From Acidimicrobiales bacterium (lineage in GTDB: Bacteria > Actinomycetota > Acidimicrobiia > Acidimicrobiales > CADCSY01): a stretch of 34,544 nucleotides of DNA. Below, piece by piece: positions 1,173 through 11,777 of the stretch. The position numbers were made by a program, and so were the translations under genes. Numbering within the stretch: position 1 is the stretch's first letter; every line of letters begins with the position of its first letter. The notes under the pieces were generated by a model. The model saw only the letters and a list, made by a program, of their open reading frames with translations, did no database searches and was not told the origin of the DNA. The stretch lies in assembly GCA_025463335.1 (NCBI GenBank), contig JAOBWJ010000295.1, positions 1 through 34,544 of the forward strand, written 5' to 3'.

Positions 1173-3716
1173 ATGTCTCGTGAGATCTCGTTGATCACGG
1201 TCCCCCATGTTGGTTCGCCGGTGGCGCCGGCGCCCTCCCATCCGGAGGACATCGCCACGTCGCGCGTCCGGGTCGACGGCAAGTTCTTTTCGGTCGATGG
1301 TCGTCGTTTCCCCTTCCGGGGAGTCAGCTACGGCACCTTCCAGCCGCGCGGTGACAGCGAGCGGTTCCCCGAGCGGGAGCAGATGAAGCTCGATCTGTCG
1401 GAGATGGCGGCGAGCGGCTTCACCGTCGTCCGGACGTACACCGAGCCGGGCGGTGACCTGCTCGAGCTCGCCGACGAGTGGGGGCTGAAGCTCTTCGCCG
1501 GTATTCACTTCGACGACTGGCGCTACCTGGTCGGGGGGTCCAAACGGCAGCAGCGGAGCCTGCTGCGCAGCGCCCGGCTCGACATCGAGCGAGCCGCGCG
1601 GCGCCTGCGCGGAACTCCTACCGTCGCGGCCCTGAGCCTCGCGAACGAGGTACCGGCCGACGTCGTCCGATGGATCGGCACCGATGCCATAGCGAGCGCT
1701 CTCGGCGAGCTCGCTGACGCGGTGCACGACATCGACGACGAGACGCTCGTGACGTATGCGAACTACCCGAGCACCGAATACCTGCAGGTAGCGGGGCTGG
1801 ACTTCGTGACGTTCAACCTCTTCCTCGAGGAGGACGAACCGTTCCGTCGTTACGTCACCCGTCTTCAGCATCTTGCCGGGCACCTCCCGCTTGTCATTGG
1901 CGAGCTCGGAATGCATGTCGACGACGACGGTTCGGCACAGGCCGCTGCCCTCGATCGCCATCTCGGCACCCTCGTCGAACGCGGCTGTGCCGGCTATTGC
2001 GTGTTCTCCTGGACCGACGAGTGGTGGGTGGGCGATGCAGCCGTCGAAGGGTGGCACTTCGGGCTGACGACCTCGGAACGAGCGCCGCGGCCGGCACTCG
2101 AGGCGGTCGCGTCGTGGAACGAGCGAGACGTACGCGACATCGACCTGAAGTGGCCATCGATCAGCGTCGTCATCTGTGCATACAACGCAGTGGCGACGCT
2201 CGACGAGTGCCTGCGGCACACCGTCGCGCTCGACTACCCGGAGCTCGAGATCATCGTCGTCGATGACGGGTCGACCGACGCAACCCCATCGATCGCCGCG
2301 TCGTATCCGGAGGTGCGCCTTGTCACGATCCCGCACGGTGGGTTGGCGACGGCACGGAACGCGGGAATCCAGGTGGCGCACCACGAGGTCGTCGCCTATC
2401 TCGACAGCGACGCGTACCCGACACCCGAGTGGCCATACTTCCTCTCCCTAGGCTTCGATCGGCCGGGCACAGCCGGCTGTGGCGGGCCCAATGTCGGTCC
2501 ACCGAAGGATGGTTCGGCGGCCGAGCGCGTTTCGCAGGCGCCGGGCGGCCCCGTGCACGTGCTCCTCGACGACGACCGAGCCGAACACATACCTGGCTGC
2601 AACATGGCCTTTTGGCGCGACACGTTGGTCGAGCTCGGCGGCTTCGATCCGATCTTCACGACGGCGGGCGACGACGTCGACCTGTGCTGGCGACTTCTGG
2701 ACCACGGTGGCGAGATCGGGTATCACCCGGCGGCCCTGGTGTGGCACCACCGCCGGGGCAGCATCCGGGCATATCTGCGCCAGCAACGGGGATACGGCCG
2801 CAGCGAGGCTCTCGTAGAGACGCGGCACCCGGCCCGGTTCACCCGCTTCGGGTCTGCTCGCTGGCGTGGCGCCATCTACGGCGGCGGCGCCTTGGCCGCT
2901 CGCGAGAGCGTGTACCGGGGGGTCCTCGGCGCGGCGGCCTTTCAGTCCATCTACCGGACGGGCCGAACGGCGCTGACGGTCGCCTATCAGATCGGCACGC
3001 CGATCGTCGTGTTCACGCTCGCAGCCGCGATAGCCGGCATGTCGATCGGCGACGGCCCGGTGGCCGATGCCGCGCGCGTCGCGGCGGTGCTGTCGGTCGT
3101 CTTTCTCATCAGTCTGGCGTTCGATAGTGCTCGTCGAGCTTCGCCGTCGAGGCGGATGCCCTTGTGGCGACGGCTCGGGTTCCGACTCGCGGTCGCGTCG
3201 CTGCATCTCACACAACCGCTAGCGCGGTTGACCGGCCGCAGCTTGTCGCATCGCTCCGCTCGGCGTGGGACGCCATACGACCCGACGTTCCTGCCCGGGG
3301 CGCCGGTGCAGTGCAGGCACGGGACGATGCTCTTCGCGTTCGACGGTGATCGGAGCGCCACGATGAGAGCCCTGCTCTCCTACGTCAGTCGGAGCGGCAT
3401 CAAGATGATCCTCGGGTCGAGTTGGGACAGCCATGACGCGCATCTGCTGCCGTCGTTCTTGCTGGGCGCCACGGTCACCTCATCCGCGTATCCAGAGCAC
3501 TGGTTGCAGGTCCGTGTTCGGCGCTTCATACGGCTGAAGCTGGCGCTCGTCTCCGTCGCCGTCATCACGTTCATGGTCCGCGAGCGGGCCGTCCTGCTCA
3601 CCGGGGCGGTCGCCACGGTCGTCTTGATCGACGTCATCGTCGGTTGGTGGCGAAGCGGGCCGCACCTTCGGCGCGTCATCCGCTCCGCGCCGGCCTGTCA
3701 TTCCGAGGTGTCGTGA
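1173..3716 (+). CDS. Glycoside hydrolase (clan A TIM-barrel-like)-glycosyltransferase family 2 fusion with C-terminal membrane helices
   Basis: N-terminal GH-like part with SLANEVP and VIGELGMH (putative acid/base and nucleophile Glu). Middle GT2 part: ISVVICAYNAVATLDECLRHTVALDYPELEIIVVDDGSTD, AYLDSDAYP, TAGDDVDLCWRLLDHG. Hydrophobic helices near the C-terminus. Confidence 0.85.
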   Translation: MSREISLITVPHVGSPVAPAPSHPEDIATSRVRVDGKFFSVDGRRFPFRGVSYGTFQPRGDSERFPEREQMKLDLSEMAASGFTVVRTYTEPGGDLLELADEWGLKLFAGIHFDDWRYLVGGSKRQQRSLLRSARLDIERAARRLRGTPTVAALSLANEVPADVVRWIGTDAIASALGELADAVHDIDDETLVTYANYPSTEYLQVAGLDFVTFNLFLEEDEPFRRYVTRLQHLAGHLPLVIGELGMHVDDDGSAQAAALDRHLGTLVERGCAGYCVFSWTDEWWVGDAAVEGWHFGLTTSERAPRPALEAVASWNERDVRDIDLKWPSISVVICAYNAVATLDECLRHTVALDYPELEIIVVDDGSTDATPSIAASYPEVRLVTIPHGGLATARNAGIQVAHHEVVAYLDSDAYPTPEWPYFLSLGFDRPGTAGCGGPNVGPPKDGSAAERVSQAPGGPVHVLLDDDRAEHIPGCNMAFWRDTLVELGGFDPIFTTAGDDVDLCWRLLDHGGEIGYHPAALVWHHRRGSIRAYLRQQRGYGRSEALVETRHPARFTRFGSARWRGAIYGGGALAARESVYRGVLGAAAFQSIYRTGRTALTVAYQIGTPIVVFTLAAAIAGMSIGDGPVADAARVAAVLSVVFLISLAFDSARRASPSRRMPLWRRLGFRLAVASLHLTQPLARLTGRSLSHRSARRGTPYDPTFLPGAPVQCRHGTMLFAFDGDRSATMRALLSYVSRSGIKMILGSSWDSHDAHLLPSFLLGATVTSSAYPEHWLQVRVRRFIRLKLALVSVAVITFMVRERAVLLTGAVATVVLIDVIVGWWRSGPHLRRVIRSAPACHSEVS

Positions 3717-3773
3717 ACACCTGCTTCGTGTACCGGGAGCCGGGCACGACGGCGTGACCTCGACGATCGGCCC

Positions 3774-4460
3774 TCAAGGCGCGCCCACCTTCGCGAAATG
3801 TGCTTTCACCTTCGGGTCACACAGCGTCTCCAGCTCGATGGCGCGCTCGATGCCGTAGTCGTCGGCCTCCGGGTCGGGCCACTCGCCCGGGTGGCAGCTG
3901 AGCTCGGTGGCCTCGGGAGGTAGCGAGTCGAGAAGCCGTACGAGGGCGTCGACGGTGATGAGCTCGTGGCAGGTGGCGGCCCCGCCGTACTGCCCATAGA
4001 AGTTGCCGCAGAACGCGATGCCCGGTGTCAGTTCGCGGACACGCACGCCGAGGCGTTCACCCCATCCGAGCACGACCGACCGCACCGGCTCGTGTCGGTG
4101 GACGTGCTGGTGCGAGTCGAGGTGCGTGGGCGGCCGGCCCATGAGGGCGACGAAGGCATCGATCTGGCTGGCGACCTCCGCCGCCACGGCCCCGGGATCA
4201 TCGACATCGGCGATCCGGACGACCTCCAACCACTCGCCGTTCCGGTACGCCCAGTCGGTCAGGTCGACGTGCAGGCCGACCTCGAGCCTGGTCAGCGGGC
4301 GGCTCAGCTCCACCGCCTGGCCCGCGTGCGCGGCGCGCACCATGAGGCTGGTGCTTCTGACGATGCCGTCGGTGTGGGCGCGGACGATGCCTCGATTGAC
4401 GGCGGGGGTCCGGCCGAAATCATCGGCGTTCACGATGACCCGTCGCTGCCCGTCGCTCAT
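3774..4460 (-). CDS. ChbG/YdjC-like carbohydrate deacetylase
   Basis: MSDGQRRVIVNADDFGRTPAVNRGIVRAHTDGIVRSTSLMV...HLDSHQHVHRHEPV...ELSCHPGEWPD; NADDFG and DSHQHVH motifs. Start at 4460 overlaps the upstream gene by 4 nt. Confidence 0.9.
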   Translation of the reverse strand: MSDGQRRVIVNADDFGRTPAVNRGIVRAHTDGIVRSTSLMVRAAHAGQAVELSRPLTRLEVGLHVDLTDWAYRNGEWLEVVRIADVDDPGAVAAEVASQIDAFVALMGRPPTHLDSHQHVHRHEPVRSVVLGWGERLGVRVRELTPGIAFCGNFYGQYGGAATCHELITVDALVRLLDSLPPEATELSCHPGEWPDPEADDYGIERAIELETLCDPKVKAHFAKVGAP

Positions 4461-5437
4461 CGGCCGTAGTCCTCCGCCGCATCGCGCAGCTCGGCGTGCC
4501 AGTCGGTTCGGTGCGCGGCCGGCGGGACCCAGTCGTTCGCCCATCCCAACCACTGCGCCGCGTACTGCACCCGAGCCGCGGCGACGACGTGGTGGAGCTC
4601 ATCGAAGGAACGGTGCTGCCACGTCGTGGACGCCTCTCGGTATGCCGCGACCATGTGAGCGCGATCGGGGCCGGCCCAGCCGGTGACGATGGCGGCCAGG
4701 TCGACGGGGCCCGGCGCCACGGCAAGCGTTTCGAAGTCCACGAAGACGGCGTCGTCGGACGTCATGAGAATGTTGGACGCATACAGCTCGCCGTGCACGA
4801 TCGTGGGAGGCAGCGCGCCGAGTGCGGGTGGAACGCAGTCCCGCAACGTCTCGAGCAGGCCGATGGACGCGCCGCTCTCGTCATCGGTCGATTCGCCTCC
4901 GCGTAGGGCCGCGATGGCGCGGTCGTACCACCTCCGGTTGCTCGCCGACGTGGGCCGGTCGAACGGAATCGGCGACCTGCATTCGCCCGCCCGTACGGCG
5001 AGGCAATCATGCATGCGCGCTGCGGTGACGGCCGCCTCGCACCATTGGTCGATCGCCCCGAACTCGGCGAGAGGTGTGCCGCCGACTGCGACGGTGACGA
5101 GCCAGCGGTACGGACCTTGGTCGAGCACGCCGACGAACCGGGGCACCGGCAGACCCGGGTCATCGAAGAGGTGTTCGTAGGCAGCGATCTCTCGCCGAAC
5201 GGAGTACACGTCGACAGGGCGCGTGCGGGCCGCAACGGGCAGAAGGCCGGCGGCATCGACGCGCTTGGCGATCAGCAAGATCGACGGCCGTCCCTCGACG
5301 TGGACGAGCCAGTCCTCGAGCCGGCGGCTCGATGCGTGCGGATTCGGTGAGCGCTCCACCGCGACGACCCGGCCATCGATGCTCAATCCGTCCTGCAGCA
5401 TCGGGCCGAGGCGGGCGACGAATGAGGCAGGCGTCAT
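4457..5437 (-). CDS. APH-fold phosphotransferase family protein
   Basis: PPTIVHGELYASNILMTSDDAVFVDFETLAVAPGPVDLAAIVTGW: HGxLxxxN and DFE loops of the aminoglycoside phosphotransferase fold. Confidence 0.85.
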   Translation of the reverse strand: MTPASFVARLGPMLQDGLSIDGRVVAVERSPNPHASSRRLEDWLVHVEGRPSILLIAKRVDAAGLLPVAARTRPVDVYSVRREIAAYEHLFDDPGLPVPRFVGVLDQGPYRWLVTVAVGGTPLAEFGAIDQWCEAAVTAARMHDCLAVRAGECRSPIPFDRPTSASNRRWYDRAIAALRGGESTDDESGASIGLLETLRDCVPPALGALPPTIVHGELYASNILMTSDDAVFVDFETLAVAPGPVDLAAIVTGWAGPDRAHMVAAYREASTTWQHRSFDELHHVVAAARVQYAAQWLGWANDWVPPAAHRTDWHAELRDAAEDYGR

Positions 5438-6591
5438 GTCACACCCACGCAGGACAAGAGTGCACCGAGGACGCGATCGGACTCGAGCCAGGTCTCGGCA
5501 AACTCTCGCGCCGCGACGCAGTGCCGCTCGTAGTCACCGGCGACCTCGGCAATGGCGGCGGCCGCCGTCTCGACGTCGTCGAACGGCACGATCCCGTGGC
5601 CGAGCGGCAGGACCTCCGAGAGCCCGGTGTCCTGCACGACGACAGGTCGGCCCGACGCGAGGTAGCACGCGCTTCGGTCGCTGAACCATCCGCAGCGCGA
5701 CTGCACGTACCCGCTCTTCGCCAGCCCGACCTCGGCCTTGGAAGACTGGATGAAGGCTCGATAGCTGCCGGGGTCGCACGCGATGGTCGCCGGGTTCACG
5801 GGCCGCCACCCGTGACGGTTCAGCAGGTCGAGATCGTTCGTCTCGCCGGCGTCGATGGCGAGGGCGATCTCGATGCGCTCCGCGGTCCTGGTGGGGAGCG
5901 ACACGAGCTGGCGCACGCTGTGTGCCTTCTGTCCGTAGAAGACGCCGTCGTGAAGGATCGATCCGTAGCCACGCCAGTTCGCGATGGTCGTCCACGCGGC
6001 CTCGGCCGCGGGCGGCGCCACCGGCCACTCATCGAGCACGACGGGCGGCCGGGTGTGGATCCACTCGAGCCCGAGCGTGGGCACGACACAGTTCGGCCGG
6101 CCCACCTGGAGCCCGACCGTTGCGGCGTGGGTGTGACCGGCCAGGCGCATGTCGACGCCCTCGTAGGCCTGCCACATCTGCGTGAAGCAGGGGTCGAGAT
6201 CGAGATACACCCGCGCTCGGGCGCGCTCGAACACCTGCTTGTTCGCCAGACCACCGGCGACGTCGAAGATGACATCGGCGGGAGGCGATGCGGGGCCGAG
6301 GCTCGGTGCGCCAGGGCCCTCGAGCGCTCCGTCGTCGAGCGCCAGCGCCCACCTGTCGGCGAGCCCGAAGGGTTCGAGAACGGTTTGTAGATAACGGACG
6401 TTGTCGGACGACGCGGCGTCGACGCCACGTGGTCGCAACTGCGCCGGCCGCAACGGCTCGACGAACCAGACCTCGTGGCCCAGCCGACGCAACCCGAGGA
6501 TGTACTGCAGCACGGCCCAGGTCGCGCCACCCTGCGACGGCACGGCGCACATCATGCCGCTCACCACGACCCGGAGGCGCTGGCGCGTCAT
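5434..6591 (-). CDS. Glycosyltransferase-like protein, paralogue A
   Basis: MTRQRLRVVVSGMMCAVPSQGGATWAVLQYILGLRRLGHEVWFVEPL...RVYLDLDPCFTQMW...YGQKAHSVRQL...CGWFSDRSACYLASGRPVVVQDTGLSEVLP; GT-B-like C-terminal pattern. Confidence 0.75.
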   Translation of the reverse strand: MTRQRLRVVVSGMMCAVPSQGGATWAVLQYILGLRRLGHEVWFVEPLRPAQLRPRGVDAASSDNVRYLQTVLEPFGLADRWALALDDGALEGPGAPSLGPASPPADVIFDVAGGLANKQVFERARARVYLDLDPCFTQMWQAYEGVDMRLAGHTHAATVGLQVGRPNCVVPTLGLEWIHTRPPVVLDEWPVAPPAAEAAWTTIANWRGYGSILHDGVFYGQKAHSVRQLVSLPTRTAERIEIALAIDAGETNDLDLLNRHGWRPVNPATIACDPGSYRAFIQSSKAEVGLAKSGYVQSRCGWFSDRSACYLASGRPVVVQDTGLSEVLPLGHGIVPFDDVETAAAAIAEVAGDYERHCVAAREFAETWLESDRVLGALLSCVGVT

Positions 6592-7706
6592 GGGCTCACC
6601 CCGACCCGTTCGAGCAATGGGGTGAGAGCGGCCTCAGGCGAAGCGAACTCCGCGACCCAGGCGCGGGCTGCTCGGCAATGGTGTTCGTAGTCTTGTGCGA
6701 TCGCTCGGGCTCGCGCGCCTGCCTCATCGAGCGTGCGGAACGTATTCAGACCGGCGCCGGTGGGAACGGCGCGGCCGAGGCCGGTGTCCTGGACGAGGAC
6801 GGGCCGGCCGGCGGCGAGGTAGCGGAGGCTCCGGTCGCTGATCCAACCGCTCTGCGTCTCCACATACGCACCCTGGGCCACCGACAGTTCGGCACTGGAC
6901 CCCAGGACGTACGAGCGGAACGCGTCGGGCGAGGCGGCGACGTGGGTCGGATCCACCAGGTGCCAGCCGTGGGCGGCGAGGTTGTCGCGGTCGGCTTCGT
7001 CCGCACCGTCAATGTCCAGCGCGACCTCGACGTCCCAGTCGACGTGCCGAGGAAGTTCGACGAAATGGCGGAACTCGTGCGCCTTCTGGCCATACGTCAC
7101 ACCCCGGTGCTCCAGGCGTCCGTACCCCCCGCGGAACGCCGCGATGGTGGTGAAGCGGCCGGGGAGCGATGGGGTGTCGGCGAACGACCAGTCGTCGAGG
7201 CACGTGGGTGGCACGATCGGCAGCCACGAGAACCGGCCGGTAGGGATGGTGCACTCGGAGCGGCCGACGCACAGCCCGACGGTGCCGTGTACGTCGTAGT
7301 GCTCGAGCATCGACCCGAGGAGGCCCTGCTCGTGCCACATCTGGGTGTAGCCCGGATCGAGATCGACGTACACGCGGCGTCGAGCTCGCTTGAGCACATC
7401 GAGATGGCGGACGTTGCCGCTGATGTTGACGAAGAGCTCGGCGGCGTCGGACCAGCCGATGGCCGTAGCGAGGGTGTCATCGGCATCACCGGTGACCAGG
7501 ACCGCTCGAGCCTCGAGACCGGCCCACTTGACGACGGTGTCGAACCAGGCCCGAGCCGCGGGCGATGCATCGTCCAGCTGCTCGACGAAGCGCACCTCGA
7601 AGCCGAGCTGGGCGAGTGCCCGCACCCAGCTGATGCGCACCCAAGCTTCGCCGCCGTTGCGCGGCTTGGCGGCCAGGGCCCCGGCGACGAGGACACACGA
7701 TGCCAT
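6588..7706 (-). CDS. Glycosyltransferase-like protein, paralogue B
   Basis: Same motif set as its neighbours: RVYVDLDPGYTQMWHEQG, YGQKAHEFRHF, SGWISDRSLRYLAAGRPVLVQDTGLGRAVP. Confidence 0.75.
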   Translation of the reverse strand: MASCVLVAGALAAKPRNGGEAWVRISWVRALAQLGFEVRFVEQLDDASPAARAWFDTVVKWAGLEARAVLVTGDADDTLATAIGWSDAAELFVNISGNVRHLDVLKRARRRVYVDLDPGYTQMWHEQGLLGSMLEHYDVHGTVGLCVGRSECTIPTGRFSWLPIVPPTCLDDWSFADTPSLPGRFTTIAAFRGGYGRLEHRGVTYGQKAHEFRHFVELPRHVDWDVEVALDIDGADEADRDNLAAHGWHLVDPTHVAASPDAFRSYVLGSSAELSVAQGAYVETQSGWISDRSLRYLAAGRPVLVQDTGLGRAVPTGAGLNTFRTLDEAGARARAIAQDYEHHCRAARAWVAEFASPEAALTPLLERVGVSP

Positions 7707-8261
7707 CTACTTCAGCGCCTCGATGTACAGGCTCTCGTGCTCTCGGTTGTCGAGGTCGGTGATTCCGGGCAGCCTCGACGACGACTCGAGATAGTGGCAA
7801 TGGTGCACCTCTCGAAAGCCCGCCTTTCGAAGCAGCTCCTCGATGAACTCGGCCGTGAACAGCGTGACGGACCAGCCGTACCACAACATGTGGACGATGA
7901 ATTTGCCGCTCAGCGACGTGACCTCGTCGTCTGGCACGGCGAAGTGACCAGCTCGCCCTTCGACGAGCGCGGCGAGGCCCTTGTCGAGATCTGGGAGGCA
8001 CAGCCGCAACACCCCGCCGGCCTGCAGCACGCGGTGCAGCTCACACAGCGCGGGCACGAGATCGGGATAGCTGACCATCGGCAGGGCGTGAATGCTGACG
8101 ACATAGGCGAAGGTCTCGTCGTCAACGGGAAGACCGTCGCGGATGTCGGCGACGATCTCGATGCTCGGGCCCTCTTTCAGGTCGGAATTGACCCAACCCG
8201 GTTCTCCCTGGTCACCGCAGCCCCAGTTGAGACGGCAAAGGGGCGGTGTTCTCTCCGTCAC
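7707..8261 (-). CDS. SAM-dependent methyltransferase (class I)
   Basis: CRLNWGCGDQGEPGWVNSDLKEGPSIEIVADIRDGLPVDDETFAYVVSIHALPMVSYPDLVPALCELHRVLQAGGVLRLCLPDLDKG; glycine-rich motif I and methyltransferase_11-like layout. Confidence 0.85.
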   Translation of the reverse strand: MTERTPPLCRLNWGCGDQGEPGWVNSDLKEGPSIEIVADIRDGLPVDDETFAYVVSIHALPMVSYPDLVPALCELHRVLQAGGVLRLCLPDLDKGLAALVEGRAGHFAVPDDEVTSLSGKFIVHMLWYGWSVTLFTAEFIEELLRKAGFREVHHCHYLESSSRLPGITDLDNREHESLYIEALK

Positions 8262-9430
8262 GACCGGATTCCGAGACGAGTGAGGAGGGTCTCGAGGACG
8301 ATGTCGGCGGCGAACACGGTCTCGGCGGCATCGCGGGCACGTTGGCGGAGTCGAGGTGCATCGCGCCGGACCTGAGCGACGAGCTCAACGGCCTCGTCCG
8401 GCGAAGAGAAGAGCAGCAGGGCGGCATCGGCGGCGAAATCGGCATCGATGCCGGTGTCCTGCATCAGCACCGGGTGCCCACTCGCGAGGTAGCAAGGGCT
8501 GCGGTCGCTGATCCAGCCGGTGCGGGCACGTACGTACATGTTCTTCGCGACGAGGATCTCGGCGCCCGAGCCCTGCACGAAGGTGCGATAGCAATCGAGA
8601 TCGGCCGCGACATCCTGTGGTGACACGAGCTCCCAGCGCCCGTCGCGCAACCGGGCCGCATCGTCGCCGTCGGCGTCGTCGATGTCGAGCGCCGCCACGA
8701 ACCGGTCGCCGCACCGGGCGGGAAGGTCGTGATAGGAGCGAAACTCGTGCACGCGCAATCCGTACGTGACGCCATCGTGTTCGACCGGACCGAATGGCCC
8801 CCGCCACGACGCCACCGTCGTGAATGGAGCGTCGTCGTCGCAAGACACGTAGGGCCACTGCGAGAGCACGACGGGGGGCAGCGTGGGTATCCATTCGAGC
8901 CCGAGGGCCGGCACTGCGCACTCGGGCGCGCCGATCCTCGTGCCCACCGTGACGTACTGGTGGTGGTCCCCAAACACTCTTGCCTGACCGTTCTCCTGCC
9001 ACATCTGCCCGAAACCCGGGTCGATGTCGAGGAAGACACGATGAGACGCAAGCGCCCCACGGTCGGGGCCGAGATATCCCATGACATCGAGGAGGAGGAC
9101 CGAACCGCGCAGCGCGTCGTCGACCGTTGCGTCCTCGAGCCCAAGGGTGGTCGATCCACAAGCGAGCGACCACCGGCGGTGGAGATCGACGCGCCTCATG
9201 ATCCGGTCCAACCACGCGGCTTGGACACTCCGCTCGACCGAACAGGGAAGGTTGGATCGATCGGTGCAGTCGCCAGGTTCGAGCCGGTCGACGAACACGA
9301 TTTCGTAACCCAACTCGGTGAATCCGAGGAGGTACTGCAGGAACATCCAGGCGTGCCCGGCGATGCCTGGACGCTGCGCAATCGAACCGGCCACCACGAT
9401 CGTACGCCGCACATGCCTCCTCGCTGGCAC
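8258..9430 (-). CDS. Glycosyltransferase-like protein, paralogue C
   Basis: GIAGHAWMFLQYLLGFTELGYEIVFVDRLEP...RVFLDIDPGFGQMWQENG...YGLRVHEFRSY...TGWISDRSPCYLASGHPVLMQDTGID. Confidence 0.75.
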   Translation of the reverse strand: MPARRHVRRTIVVAGSIAQRPGIAGHAWMFLQYLLGFTELGYEIVFVDRLEPGDCTDRSNLPCSVERSVQAAWLDRIMRRVDLHRRWSLACGSTTLGLEDATVDDALRGSVLLLDVMGYLGPDRGALASHRVFLDIDPGFGQMWQENGQARVFGDHHQYVTVGTRIGAPECAVPALGLEWIPTLPPVVLSQWPYVSCDDDAPFTTVASWRGPFGPVEHDGVTYGLRVHEFRSYHDLPARCGDRFVAALDIDDADGDDAARLRDGRWELVSPQDVAADLDCYRTFVQGSGAEILVAKNMYVRARTGWISDRSPCYLASGHPVLMQDTGIDADFAADAALLLFSSPDEAVELVAQVRRDAPRLRQRARDAAETVFAADIVLETLLTRLGIRS

Positions 9431-9690: not shown

Positions 9691-10245
9691 GTGAAGAAGT
9701 CCCGATTCGCACTAGTGGTCGCCATCGTCAGTGCAGGCGTACTGGGAGTGGGTGCGGTGGCCATCGCCAGCCAAACCGACGGCCAGACCGAGAGGCTCAC
9801 CGGCTTCGAGGAGGTGCCGGCCCTCTCCACGCCCGGCGTCGGCACCTTCCAAGCGTCCATCAACACCGCCGCCAGCGAGATCCGCTACTCGTTGACCTTC
9901 AGCGGCCTGCAGTCGCCGGCCACGCAGGCGCACATCCATTTCGAGAACGCAACCAACAGCGGCCCGATCGTCGTGTTCCTCTGCTCCAATCTCGGCAACG
10001 GGCCGGCGGGCACGCAGGCCTGTCCCGCTGGCGGCGGCACCATCCAGGGGACGATCCGGCCCGCTGACATCGGCGCCGGGGCGGCCGATCAGGGCCTCGC
10101 CGCCGGTGAGTTCGCCGAGTTCGTCCGGGCCGTGCGCGCCGGGGCGACGTACGTGAACGTCCACAGCACGGGACGGCCGAACGGCGAGATCCGGGCGCAG
10201 CTCGGCGACACACGTGCGGCCGCCAGCCACCACCACGACGACTGA
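9691..10245 (+). CDS. Secreted CHRD-domain protein
   Basis: Signal peptide MKKSRFALVVAIVSAGVLGVGAVAIA; LTGFEEVPALSTPGVGTFQASINTAASEIRYSLTFSGLQSPATQAHIHF...YVNVHSTGRPNGEIRAQL; His/Asp-rich tail SHHHDD. Confidence 0.9.
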   Translation: MKKSRFALVVAIVSAGVLGVGAVAIASQTDGQTERLTGFEEVPALSTPGVGTFQASINTAASEIRYSLTFSGLQSPATQAHIHFENATNSGPIVVFLCSNLGNGPAGTQACPAGGGTIQGTIRPADIGAGAADQGLAAGEFAEFVRAVRAGATYVNVHSTGRPNGEIRAQLGDTRAAASHHHDD

Positions 10246-10388
10246 CCTCGCCTTCCGGGCCTCGGGCCGGCTGTCAACCACCCAAACGTGGCGGGCAGCA
10301 CACCCGAGGCTCGGTCTGGGCCAGGCGGCTGGGCGCCACGCACGCTGGCAGCCGGAAACAGGCTCAGGCCACGAGAAGGAGACGAGTG

Positions 10389-10793
10389 ATGTCCTACTTC
10401 AAGGCGGCGGTCGCCGCGCTGTGCGTCGCGTCGGTGTTGGCGGTGGGGGCGGGGACGGCCAGCGCCGACCCGACGAATGCCAAGAACAGCGAGTTGGTCC
10501 ACCTCAACTGCGACGTGAACGGACCGCTCACAGCGGTGGTGAACGGCAACGGCGACTGGACGCCGGCCCACGTGACGACGAGCAACCAGATCCTCAAGCC
10601 CTACGAGTTCCACATCACCGGAACCTTCACGCCCACGGGTGGAGCTCCCGAAGCCTTCAGCGACGACCTGGTGAAGCGCGCACCGAGGAACGGGCGGCTC
10701 GACACCTGCACCTTCAGCGAATCAGGCACGGACGAGACCGGGTCGTTCTCGCTCACGGGTGTCGTCAAGGTCTCGTACACGCCGCAGCACTGA
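10389..10793 (+). CDS. Small secreted hypothetical protein
   Basis: MSYFKAAVAALCVASVLAVGAGTASADP signal peptide plus about 100 aa mature part; RBS-like gagaaggagacgag upstream. Confidence 0.7.
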   Translation: MSYFKAAVAALCVASVLAVGAGTASADPTNAKNSELVHLNCDVNGPLTAVVNGNGDWTPAHVTTSNQILKPYEFHITGTFTPTGGAPEAFSDDLVKRAPRNGRLDTCTFSESGTDETGSFSLTGVVKVSYTPQH

Positions 10794-10827
10794 CCTGCTG
10801 TTCAGACCTCGAACCCGTTCGACCACC

Positions 10828-10854
10828 GAGGGCGGCTCACCTCGAGCCGTCCTC
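10828..10854 (+). terminator. Hairpin in the gap between the secreted-protein gene and the sigma factor gene
   Basis: GAGGGCGGCTC-acctc-GAGCCGTCCTC, 11-bp stem with one G.U pair; no T-tract. Confidence 0.35.
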
Positions 10855-10906
10855 CGGCGCGTTCCCGCTTCGCTTCCCCGGCCACCGCCGCTAGAAAGGG
10901 GAGGGC

Positions 10907-11509
10907 ATGGCCGACCAAGCGCACTTCGCCGAGCAGGCCATGGAGCACATGCCGTCGCTCTACTCGGCGGCGCTCCGCATGACCCGCAACCCGGCCGACG
11001 CCGAGGACCTCGTGCAGGAGACGTACCTCCGCGCCTATCGCGGCTACGGGGGGTTCACCGAGGGCACCAACCTCAAGGCCTGGCTGTACCGGATCCTCAC
11101 CAACACGTTCATCAACCGGTACCGGGCGAAGAAGCGGCGCCCGGAGGAGACCGAGTTCGACGACGTCGAGGACTTCTACCTGTACCGCCGGCTCGGCGGG
11201 CTGGAGGAGGCACGGGCCGGGCGCAGCGCCGAGGACGAGCTCATGGACCTCTTCCCCGAGCAGGAGGTCAAGGAGGCCGTCGAGTCCCTCCCCGAGAACT
11301 TCCGGCTGGCCGTGCTGCTCGCCGACGTCGAGGGCTTCTCCTACAAGGAGATCGCCGAGATCCTCGACATTCCCATCGGTACGGTCATGAGTCGGCTGCA
11401 TCGCGGAAGAAAGGCGCTGCAGAAGCGGTTGTACGACTTTGCCGCCGAACGGGGGCTTGCCCCCACGGGGGGCGACCCTGAGCACCGGGAGCCAGCACAA
11501 CGTGGATGA
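10907..11509 (+). CDS. sigR: ECF sigma factor, SigR/SigH-like
   Basis: [56 protein letters not shown] (as [23 protein letters not shown]... in frame) and [33 protein letters not shown]; followed by an RsrA-like gene. Confidence 0.85.
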
Positions 11510-11777
11510 CAGCCACCTCGAGCCGGGCGCAGGAGACTGCGCCGACTCCCTGAAGGAGCTCTACACCTTCTTGGACGGCGAGCTCACCGTCGAACGGCGC
11601 ACGCACATCCGTCAGCACCTCGACGGCTGCCAGAACTGTTACGAGGCCTTCGACTTCGAGGCCGAGCTGCGCATCGTGGTGTCGGCCAAGTGTCGCGACG
11701 AGGTACCCGACGAGCTGCGCGCCCGCGTCGCCGACGCCCTCAACAAGCTCAGGCAGGGCGACGAACCCGTCCTCTGA
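11502..11777 (+). CDS. rsrA: RsrA-like zinc-binding anti-sigma factor
   Basis: From GTG at 11502 overlapping the sigma gene stop: [57 protein letters not shown]; HxxxCxxC motif. Confidence 0.85.

What the first reader, a model, noticed from the sequence alone, without database searches (positions are those of the whole stretch)
1173..9430. Divergent glycan-building locus with an unusual enzyme set
A GH-GT2 membrane fusion on + faces a six-gene - operon joined by 4-nt overlaps or direct abutment: GT-C, methyltransferase, GT-B, GT-A, APH-fold kinase, ChbG-like deacetylase. The set could build, methylate, phosphorylate, deacetylate and trim or transfer one glycan. I do not recognise this combination as a named pathway. 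It is the best candidate for an undescribed system in the window. The gene content is read from sequence; the shared pathway is inference.
Basis: partly seen in the sequence, partly recalled or inferred. Interest (0 to 1): 0.68.

Follow-up and report, generated by a model that had tools for sequence, protein, structure and literature searches.

The report
Cross-phylum glycan assembly and export cluster
These seven genes are half of a gene cluster, found in at least seven bacterial phyla but not described anywhere I could find, that very probably builds, decorates and exports a complex cell-surface sugar chain; it includes a sugar-transferase family that public family libraries do not name.

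Summary
The operon is real: one + gene (GH-GT2 membrane fusion) converges on six - genes joined by 4-nt overlaps or abutment. Two enzyme assignments are wrong. The supposed 'GT-C', 'GT-B' and 'GT-A' are three paralogues (35-39% identical) of one soluble GT-B-fold family. AlphaFold gives pLDDT 97; the fold resembles GT4 enzymes, the EX7E motif is absent, and Pfam has no good model.

The genes co-occur. In 396 other genomes of the order, GT family and fusion are each in 12 and together in 10 (p ~ 2e-16). Eight of those ten carry both on one contig.

The wider cluster recurs in Actinomycetota, Chloroflexota, Planctomycetota, Gemmatimonadota, Verrucomicrobiota, Acidobacteriota and Gammaproteobacteria: GH-GT2 > ABCB exporter > GTd > variable GTs and sulfotransferases with an unnamed domain > GTa > GTb > GTc > APH-like kinase > ChbG-like deacetylase. 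The window genome's other half, exporter included, is on contig C286. The four GT paralogues form four deep clades, each spanning phyla.

Most likely this is a cytoplasmic glycan-assembly pathway with a dedicated exporter. It resembles cyclic-glucan synthase plus its exporter in layout only, and lacks that family's defining domains. I found no published description; the product is unknown.

The parts
1173..3716 (+). GH-GT2 fusion, 847 aa: clan-A TIM-barrel glycosidase-like domain (about 30-310), GT2 domain (about 326-590), C-terminal transmembrane segments; no signal peptide-like segment or TM before GT2
   Evidence: Pfam PF00535 E 1.5e-27 and PF02836 in 20 of 22 relatives; N158-E159 and E244 invariant in 22 of 22; TM at 603-648 and 784-824 only
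8258..9430 (-).
   Evidence: 39% to GTc, 35% to GTb; no TM; GTa clade 99% SH-aLRT across phyla
7707..8261 (-). SAM-dependent methyltransferase, 184 aa; accessory, also found between GTc and APH in genome G187
   Evidence: PF08241 above its cut-off; 57% identical gene in L135:9004-9528; absent from the other clusters mapped
6588..7706 (-).
   Evidence: GTb clade 99%
5434..6591 (-).
   Evidence: AlphaFold2 pLDDT 97; Foldseek: GT4-type GT-B enzymes E to 2.5e-12; GTc clade 100%
4457..5437 (-). APH-fold kinase-like protein, 326 aa, with HGE in place of the catalytic HGD
   Evidence: PF01636 E 1.4e-15; HGE in 10 of 11 orthologues, HGQ in one
3774..4460 (-). YdjC/ChbG-family sugar N-deacetylase, 228 aa, metal-site residues intact
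   Evidence: PF04794 E 8.9e-48; D13, D14, H64, H117, H119 and H121 invariant; closest PDB chitooligosaccharide deacetylase 7vi8 E 5e-37

Best explanation
The window holds half of a conserved glycan-assembly-and-export cluster. Proposed steps: (1) GH-GT2 makes or extends a glycan on the cytoplasmic face. Its clan-A GH domain, on the same side, trims, transglycosylates or sets the length of the nascent chain. (2) GTa, GTb, GTc and GTd each add a distinct sugar. GT2 and GT4 proteins carrying the WWL domain, plus sulfotransferases (on contig C286 or in relatives), lengthen and decorate it in a lineage-specific way. (3) The ChbG-like enzyme N-deacetylates an amino sugar, the APH-like protein phosphorylates a sugar or the glycan, and here the methyltransferase caps it. 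(4) The ABCB/MsbA-type exporter, encoded beside GH-GT2 in most carriers, moves the finished, probably lipid-linked or soluble, glycan across the membrane. Shown: gene content, co-occurrence, synteny, four ancient orthologous GT groups, GT-B fold, conserved catalytic residues. Inferred: order of steps, substrates, product, side of the membrane.
For: Co-occurrence: order level, 12 genomes with the GTs and 12 with the fusion, 10 shared, Fisher p 1.9e-16; relatives p 3.5e-5, phylum p 7e-8; 18 of 20 named genomes with the GTs have the full-length fusion. Synteny: ABCB exporter directly downstream of GH-GT2 in 20 genomes; GTa-GTb-GTc, APH and ChbG neighbours in Actinomycetota, Chloroflexota, Planctomycetota and Gemmatimonadota. 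In the single-contig Solirubrobacteraceae cluster nearly every interval is accounted for (a 207-aa ORF is left), and no Wzx/Wzy was recognised. GTa, GTb, GTc and GTd form separate clades that predate the spread between phyla. GH catalytic Glu pair invariant in 22 of 22. Exporter is fused TMD-NBD, PF00664+PF00005. Sulfotransferase and pyruvyl-transferase neighbours fit an exported glycan.
Against: No product, substrate or mutant is known. No initiating phosphoglycosyltransferase or polymerase was recognised, so whether the glycan is lipid-linked is unknown. The GT family lacks EX7E and the kinase lacks the catalytic Asp, so some members could be inactive or do different chemistry. In this genome the exporter is not beside the fusion.
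Confidence: 0.62

Rival explanations
1. Specialised-metabolite pathway: the GTs assemble a small oligosaccharide or glycosylated antibiotic or signal, the APH-like protein is a self-resistance or tailoring kinase, and the ABCB protein is the drug exporter.
For: The nearest solved relatives of the kinase are viomycin and capreomycin kinases (weak, E 3e-8); ABCB exporters often export drugs; tailoring enzymes are numerous; distribution is patchy and horizontal.
Against: No PKS, NRPS, cyclitol or aglycone genes recognised near the cluster; sulfotransferases, pyruvyl transferase and many GT2/GT4 genes fit a surface glycan; a membrane GT2 with GH domain suits polymer or lipid-linked synthesis; minimal clusters keep only GH-GT2, ABC and 2-4 GTs.
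Confidence: 0.17
2. Cyclic or osmoregulated glucan system: GH-GT2 is a functional analogue of cyclic beta-glucan synthase and the ABCB exporter an analogue of NdvA/Cgt, with the GTs adding substituents.
For: Same layout: GT plus GH on one membrane protein next to an MsbA-type exporter. In Cgs all soluble domains are cytoplasmic (PMC10901819); GH17-GT2 fusions of pseudomonads are proposed cyclic glucan synthases (PMC10237404). Four of 22 fusions match the GH72 transglycosylase model.
Against: No GH94, GH189 or GH17 domain is found in the fusion; the GT2 carries QQxGYG instead of the processive QxxRW motif; at least four further GTs, deacetylase and kinase are unusual for a simple glucan.
Confidence: 0.13
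3. The seven genes are unrelated neighbours that happen to be adjacent.
For: In this genome the fusion and the operon are on opposite strands, and the exporter half is on another contig.
Against: Co-occurrence p about 2e-16 in the order and shared synteny across phyla.
Confidence: 0.03

Closest known systems
Cyclic beta-1,2-glucan synthase Cgs/ChvB/NdvB with exporter Cgt/NdvA
   Same: One membrane protein joins a GT domain to GH domains, all on the cytoplasmic side, with an MsbA-type ABC exporter for the product (PMC10901819, PMC11842490)
   Different: Here about 850 aa against about 300 kDa; clan-A GH2-like domain instead of GH94 and the cyclase domain; many accessory GTs, a deacetylase and a kinase
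Pseudomonad GH17-GT2 'orphan' BcsA-like proteins
   Same: N-terminal clan-A-type TIM-barrel GH joined to membrane GT2 (PMC10237404)
   Different: Those have a signal peptide and TM helices between GH and GT2, so the GH is predicted periplasmic; here neither is present, and the GH matches GH2_C, not GH17
MftF, mycofactocin glycosyltransferase (TIGR03965)
   Same: Closest NCBIfam model to the GT2 domain, 161 bits, all 22 relatives match
   Different: Far below the 280-bit cut-off; the match covers the GT2 domain only; no mycofactocin radical SAM protein over cut-off in this genome
Glyco_trans_1_2 (PF13524) and GT4-type GT-B enzymes
   Same: GTa-d share the GT-B fold and weakly match PF13524 (24 of 52)
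   Different: 10-17% identity, no EX7E motif, family-specific GW(F/I)SDRS and QDTG motifs; the window's GTa is below the PF13524 cut-off and GTb and GTc do not match
Actinoplanes missouriensis wps-1 sporangium polysaccharide cluster
   Same: GT2, GH, sulfotransferases, methyltransferase and kinase-like protein in one cluster (PMC13390465)
   Different: Wzx/Wzy-dependent, GH26 as a separate protein, no paralogous GT-B set

Membership tests
Cyclic beta-1,2-glucan synthase (Cgs/NdvB) | GH94 phosphorylase domain at the C-terminus and a cyclase domain | tested here: not met
   Pfam and NCBIfam scans of P0001 and 21 relatives give only GT2-type and GH2_C/GH72-type domains
Cyclic beta-1,2-glucan synthase (Cgs/NdvB) | Partner MsbA-type ABC exporter | tested here: met
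   ABCB protein directly downstream of the fusion in 20 genomes; on C286 in the window's own genome
GH17-GT2 cyclic-glucan synthases of pseudomonads | GH17 domain, signal peptide, TM helices between GH and GT2 | tested here: not met
   GH2_C match, no GH17; no hydrophobic segment before residue 603
MftF mycofactocin glycosyltransferase | Score above the TIGR03965 cut-off and a mycofactocin locus in the genome | tested here: not met
   161 bits against 280; TIGR03962 not over cut-off in the genome
GT-C glycosyltransferases (claimed for GTa) | Integral membrane protein with many TM helices | tested here: not met
   No TM segment in P0002; paralogue of a GT-B fold protein
GT-A fold (claimed for GTc) | Single Rossmann-like GT-A domain with DXD | tested here: not met
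   AlphaFold model matches two-domain GT-B enzymes
GT4 retaining glycosyltransferases | GT-B fold with EX7E motif | tested here: not met
   Fold met; positions 301 and 309 of GTc are Gly and Cys/Arg/Thr across 52 members
YdjC/ChbG deacetylases | PF04794 match with metal-binding Asp/His residues | tested here: met
   E 8.9e-48; D and H residues invariant in the cluster's orthologues
APH phosphotransferases | PF01636 match with HxD catalytic motif | tested here: inconclusive
   Domain met; catalytic Asp is Glu in 10 of 11 and Gln in one, so kinase activity is not assured
Wzx/Wzy- or Wzm/Wzt-dependent polysaccharide pathways | Wzx and Wzy, or ABC-2 type Wzm/Wzt, within the cluster | tested here: not met
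   In the single-contig cluster L107 the intervals are filled by other genes; the exporter is PF00664+PF00005 in one chain. Genes elsewhere in the genome were not tested

The most novel reading that the evidence does not exclude
A previously unnamed glycan export system shared by at least seven phyla, in which a cytoplasmic clan-A glycosidase domain acts as a transglycosylase or cyclase on the chain made by its fused GT2, four ancient GT-B paralogues of a new GT family build a fixed core oligosaccharide on it, and an ABCB pump exports it: a third route beside Wzx/Wzy and Wzm/Wzt for complex heteroglycans.
Probability: 0.22. Interest if true: 0.82.

Novelty: new variant of a known kind. Interest (0 to 1): 0.6.

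Why it matters
The cluster is conserved from Actinomycetota to Gammaproteobacteria, moves between phyla, and codes for a GT-B family and a recurrent 110-residue domain that Pfam does not describe. It offers a defined gene set for an unknown envelope or secreted glycan of mostly uncultured bacteria. It also makes a clear question testable: what a glycosidase domain on the synthesis side of the membrane does to a nascent chain.

Tried and rejected
Chance neighbourhood: rejected by co-occurrence and synteny. GT-C and GT-A assignments: rejected. Mycofactocin glycosylation: rejected on the cut-off and on absence of the radical SAM protein. Cgs and GH17-GT2 membership: rejected on domains. Plasmid carriage: no relatives of P0001 or GTc in 72,556 plasmids. 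Fold search with the WWL domain gave nothing below E 1e-3. Literature searches for the combination found no description; the library holds open-access papers only. Promoter and terminator scans of the locus gave nothing above chance.
Full report
OBSERVATION. The seven genes are present as described. The fusion runs 1173-3716 on +. Six genes on - run from 9430 down to 3774 with four 4-nt overlaps and one abutment. The two transcripts converge with 57 bp between stop codons, so 'divergent' in the title is wrong. Outside the locus lie unrelated genes: a DinB-like and a VOC-like ORF upstream (judged by eye), and CHRD, ECF sigma, zf-HC2 anti-sigma-like and Zincin_2 proteins downstream.

ENZYME IDENTITIES. 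None has a transmembrane segment. A 52-member alignment gives an AlphaFold2 model of GTc with pLDDT 97 and pTM 0.95. Its best PDB matches are GT-B enzymes of GT4 type, E down to 2.5e-12, 10-17% identity. The EX7E pair is absent; GW(F/I)SDRS and QDTG are near-invariant instead. Pfam gives only a weak PF13524 match, in 24 of 52, and sequence searches of PDB find nothing significant. The fusion has a clan-A GH domain (PF02836 in 20 of 22 relatives; nearest PDB 9fz9/9g4n, E 1e-11) and a GT2 domain. The GH residues N158-E159 and E244 and the GT2 aspartates are invariant. The kinase-like protein has HGE or HGQ where APH enzymes have HGD. The deacetylase keeps its metal site.

CO-OCCURRENCE. Of 58 relatives, 6 have the GT family and 4 the fusion; all 4 overlap (p 3.5e-5). 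Of 396 genomes of the phylum, 5 have strong GT matches and 6 the fusion, 4 both (p 7e-8). Of 396 genomes of the order, 12 and 12, with 10 both (p 1.9e-16). Eight of those ten have both on one contig. Related genomes are not independent, so the p values overstate, but each hit is a different genus. Of 20 named GT-bearing genomes, 18 have the full-length fusion. G316 has the fusion and the exporter without the GTs, so GH-GT2 plus ABC is the pair that persists when the rest is missing.

THE WHOLE CLUSTER. Mapping some 60 loci gives a common plan: GH-GT2 > ABCB exporter > GTd > GT2/GT4/sulfotransferase genes carrying a 110-residue domain (called WWL here) > GTa > GTb > GTc > APH-like > ChbG. It is complete or nearly so on one contig in a Solirubrobacteraceae MAG (L033/L107), an Acidimicrobiia MAG (L104/L105), and Gemmatimonadota (L109/L034, L111/L038). 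Contig-split or partial forms occur in Planctomycetota and Chloroflexota. Reduced forms (GH-GT2, ABC, 2-4 GTs) occur in Akkermansiaceae, Ectothiorhodospiraceae and several Actinomycetota; an Acidobacteria MAG (L119, L041) also carries fusion, exporter and GTs. The exporter follows the fusion directly in 20 genomes. In the window's genome the exporter, GTd and three WWL-bearing GTs are on contig C286 (L059). There a truncated ChbG, a tRNA-Ala and two tyrosine-integrase fragments lie just upstream of the exporter, which suggests the locus was broken by a mobile-element event; this last step is inference.

HISTORY. GTa, GTb, GTc and GTd are separate clades with 99-100% SH-aLRT support (a few reduced-cluster members fall elsewhere), each mixing phyla. 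A tree of the fusion rejects a single actinobacterial clade, p-AU 0.0012. The paralogues therefore predate the spread of the cluster, and the cluster has moved between phyla.

MECHANISM. GT2 uses NDP-sugars and so faces the cytoplasm (established knowledge). The GH domain precedes it with no signal peptide-like or transmembrane segment, so it should face the cytoplasm too. A glycosidase there is best read as a chain-processing or transglycosylating domain, as in Cgs, whose soluble domains are all cytoplasmic and whose product leaves by an MsbA-type exporter (PMC10901819, PMC11842490). The resemblance is in layout only: GH94, the cyclase domain and GH17 are absent. Four conserved GT-B paralogues argue for four distinct sugar additions. 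ChbG, APH-like, methyltransferase, sulfotransferase and pyruvyl transferase are decorations of graded conservation.

LIMITS. The genome-contig scan used two peptide patterns and the phylum and order scans scored few candidates per genome, so counts are lower bounds. Most carriers are MAGs. Some genomes appear under two handles (for example G040 and G448); they were counted once. Novelty rests on family libraries and an open-access paper library only.

VERDICT.

Noticed in passing
L059 (G000:C286) 3838-4101, with tRNA-Ala 3184-3259 and integrase fragments 2767-3240 and 3374-3880: ChbG remnant (first ~95 residues, 53% identical to P0007) abutting tyrosine-integrase pieces and a tRNA-Ala, just upstream of the exporter half of the cluster: a likely rearrangement scar.
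   Followed up: partly
L059:8493-8954, L035:3169-3528 and about 30 other places (alignment A6): Recurrent ~110-residue domain with WWL motif, HFPQ and GAxxLVxP, attached to GT2, GT4 and sulfotransferase proteins, up to five copies per cluster; AlphaFold pLDDT 96.5, no Pfam family, no confident PDB fold match.
   Followed up: partly
window 4457-5437 and orthologues (A3): APH-fold protein with the catalytic HGD aspartate replaced by Glu (10 of 11) or Gln, other key residues kept.
   Followed up: partly
L135:9004-9528 (G187): The window's methyltransferase recurs (57% identity) in another actinobacterium's cluster but at a different position, between GTc and APH.
   Followed up: no
L027:3531-8968: A Chloroflexota cluster with four sulfotransferase-like genes in tandem, alternating with WWL domains.
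   Followed up: no
L043:9090-9974, L074, L067: A polysaccharide pyruvyl transferase-like gene lies between the GT paralogues in reduced clusters.
   Followed up: partly
L024:12315-13628, L039:8619-9854, L064: BNR_4 repeat protein (putative secreted glycan-binding or -cleaving protein) near GTb in several Acidimicrobiia clusters.
   Followed up: no
window 9691-11777: Next to the locus: CHRD-domain protein, small secreted-looking protein, ECF sigma factor and zinc-finger anti-sigma-like gene; no sign that they belong to the cluster.
   Followed up: no
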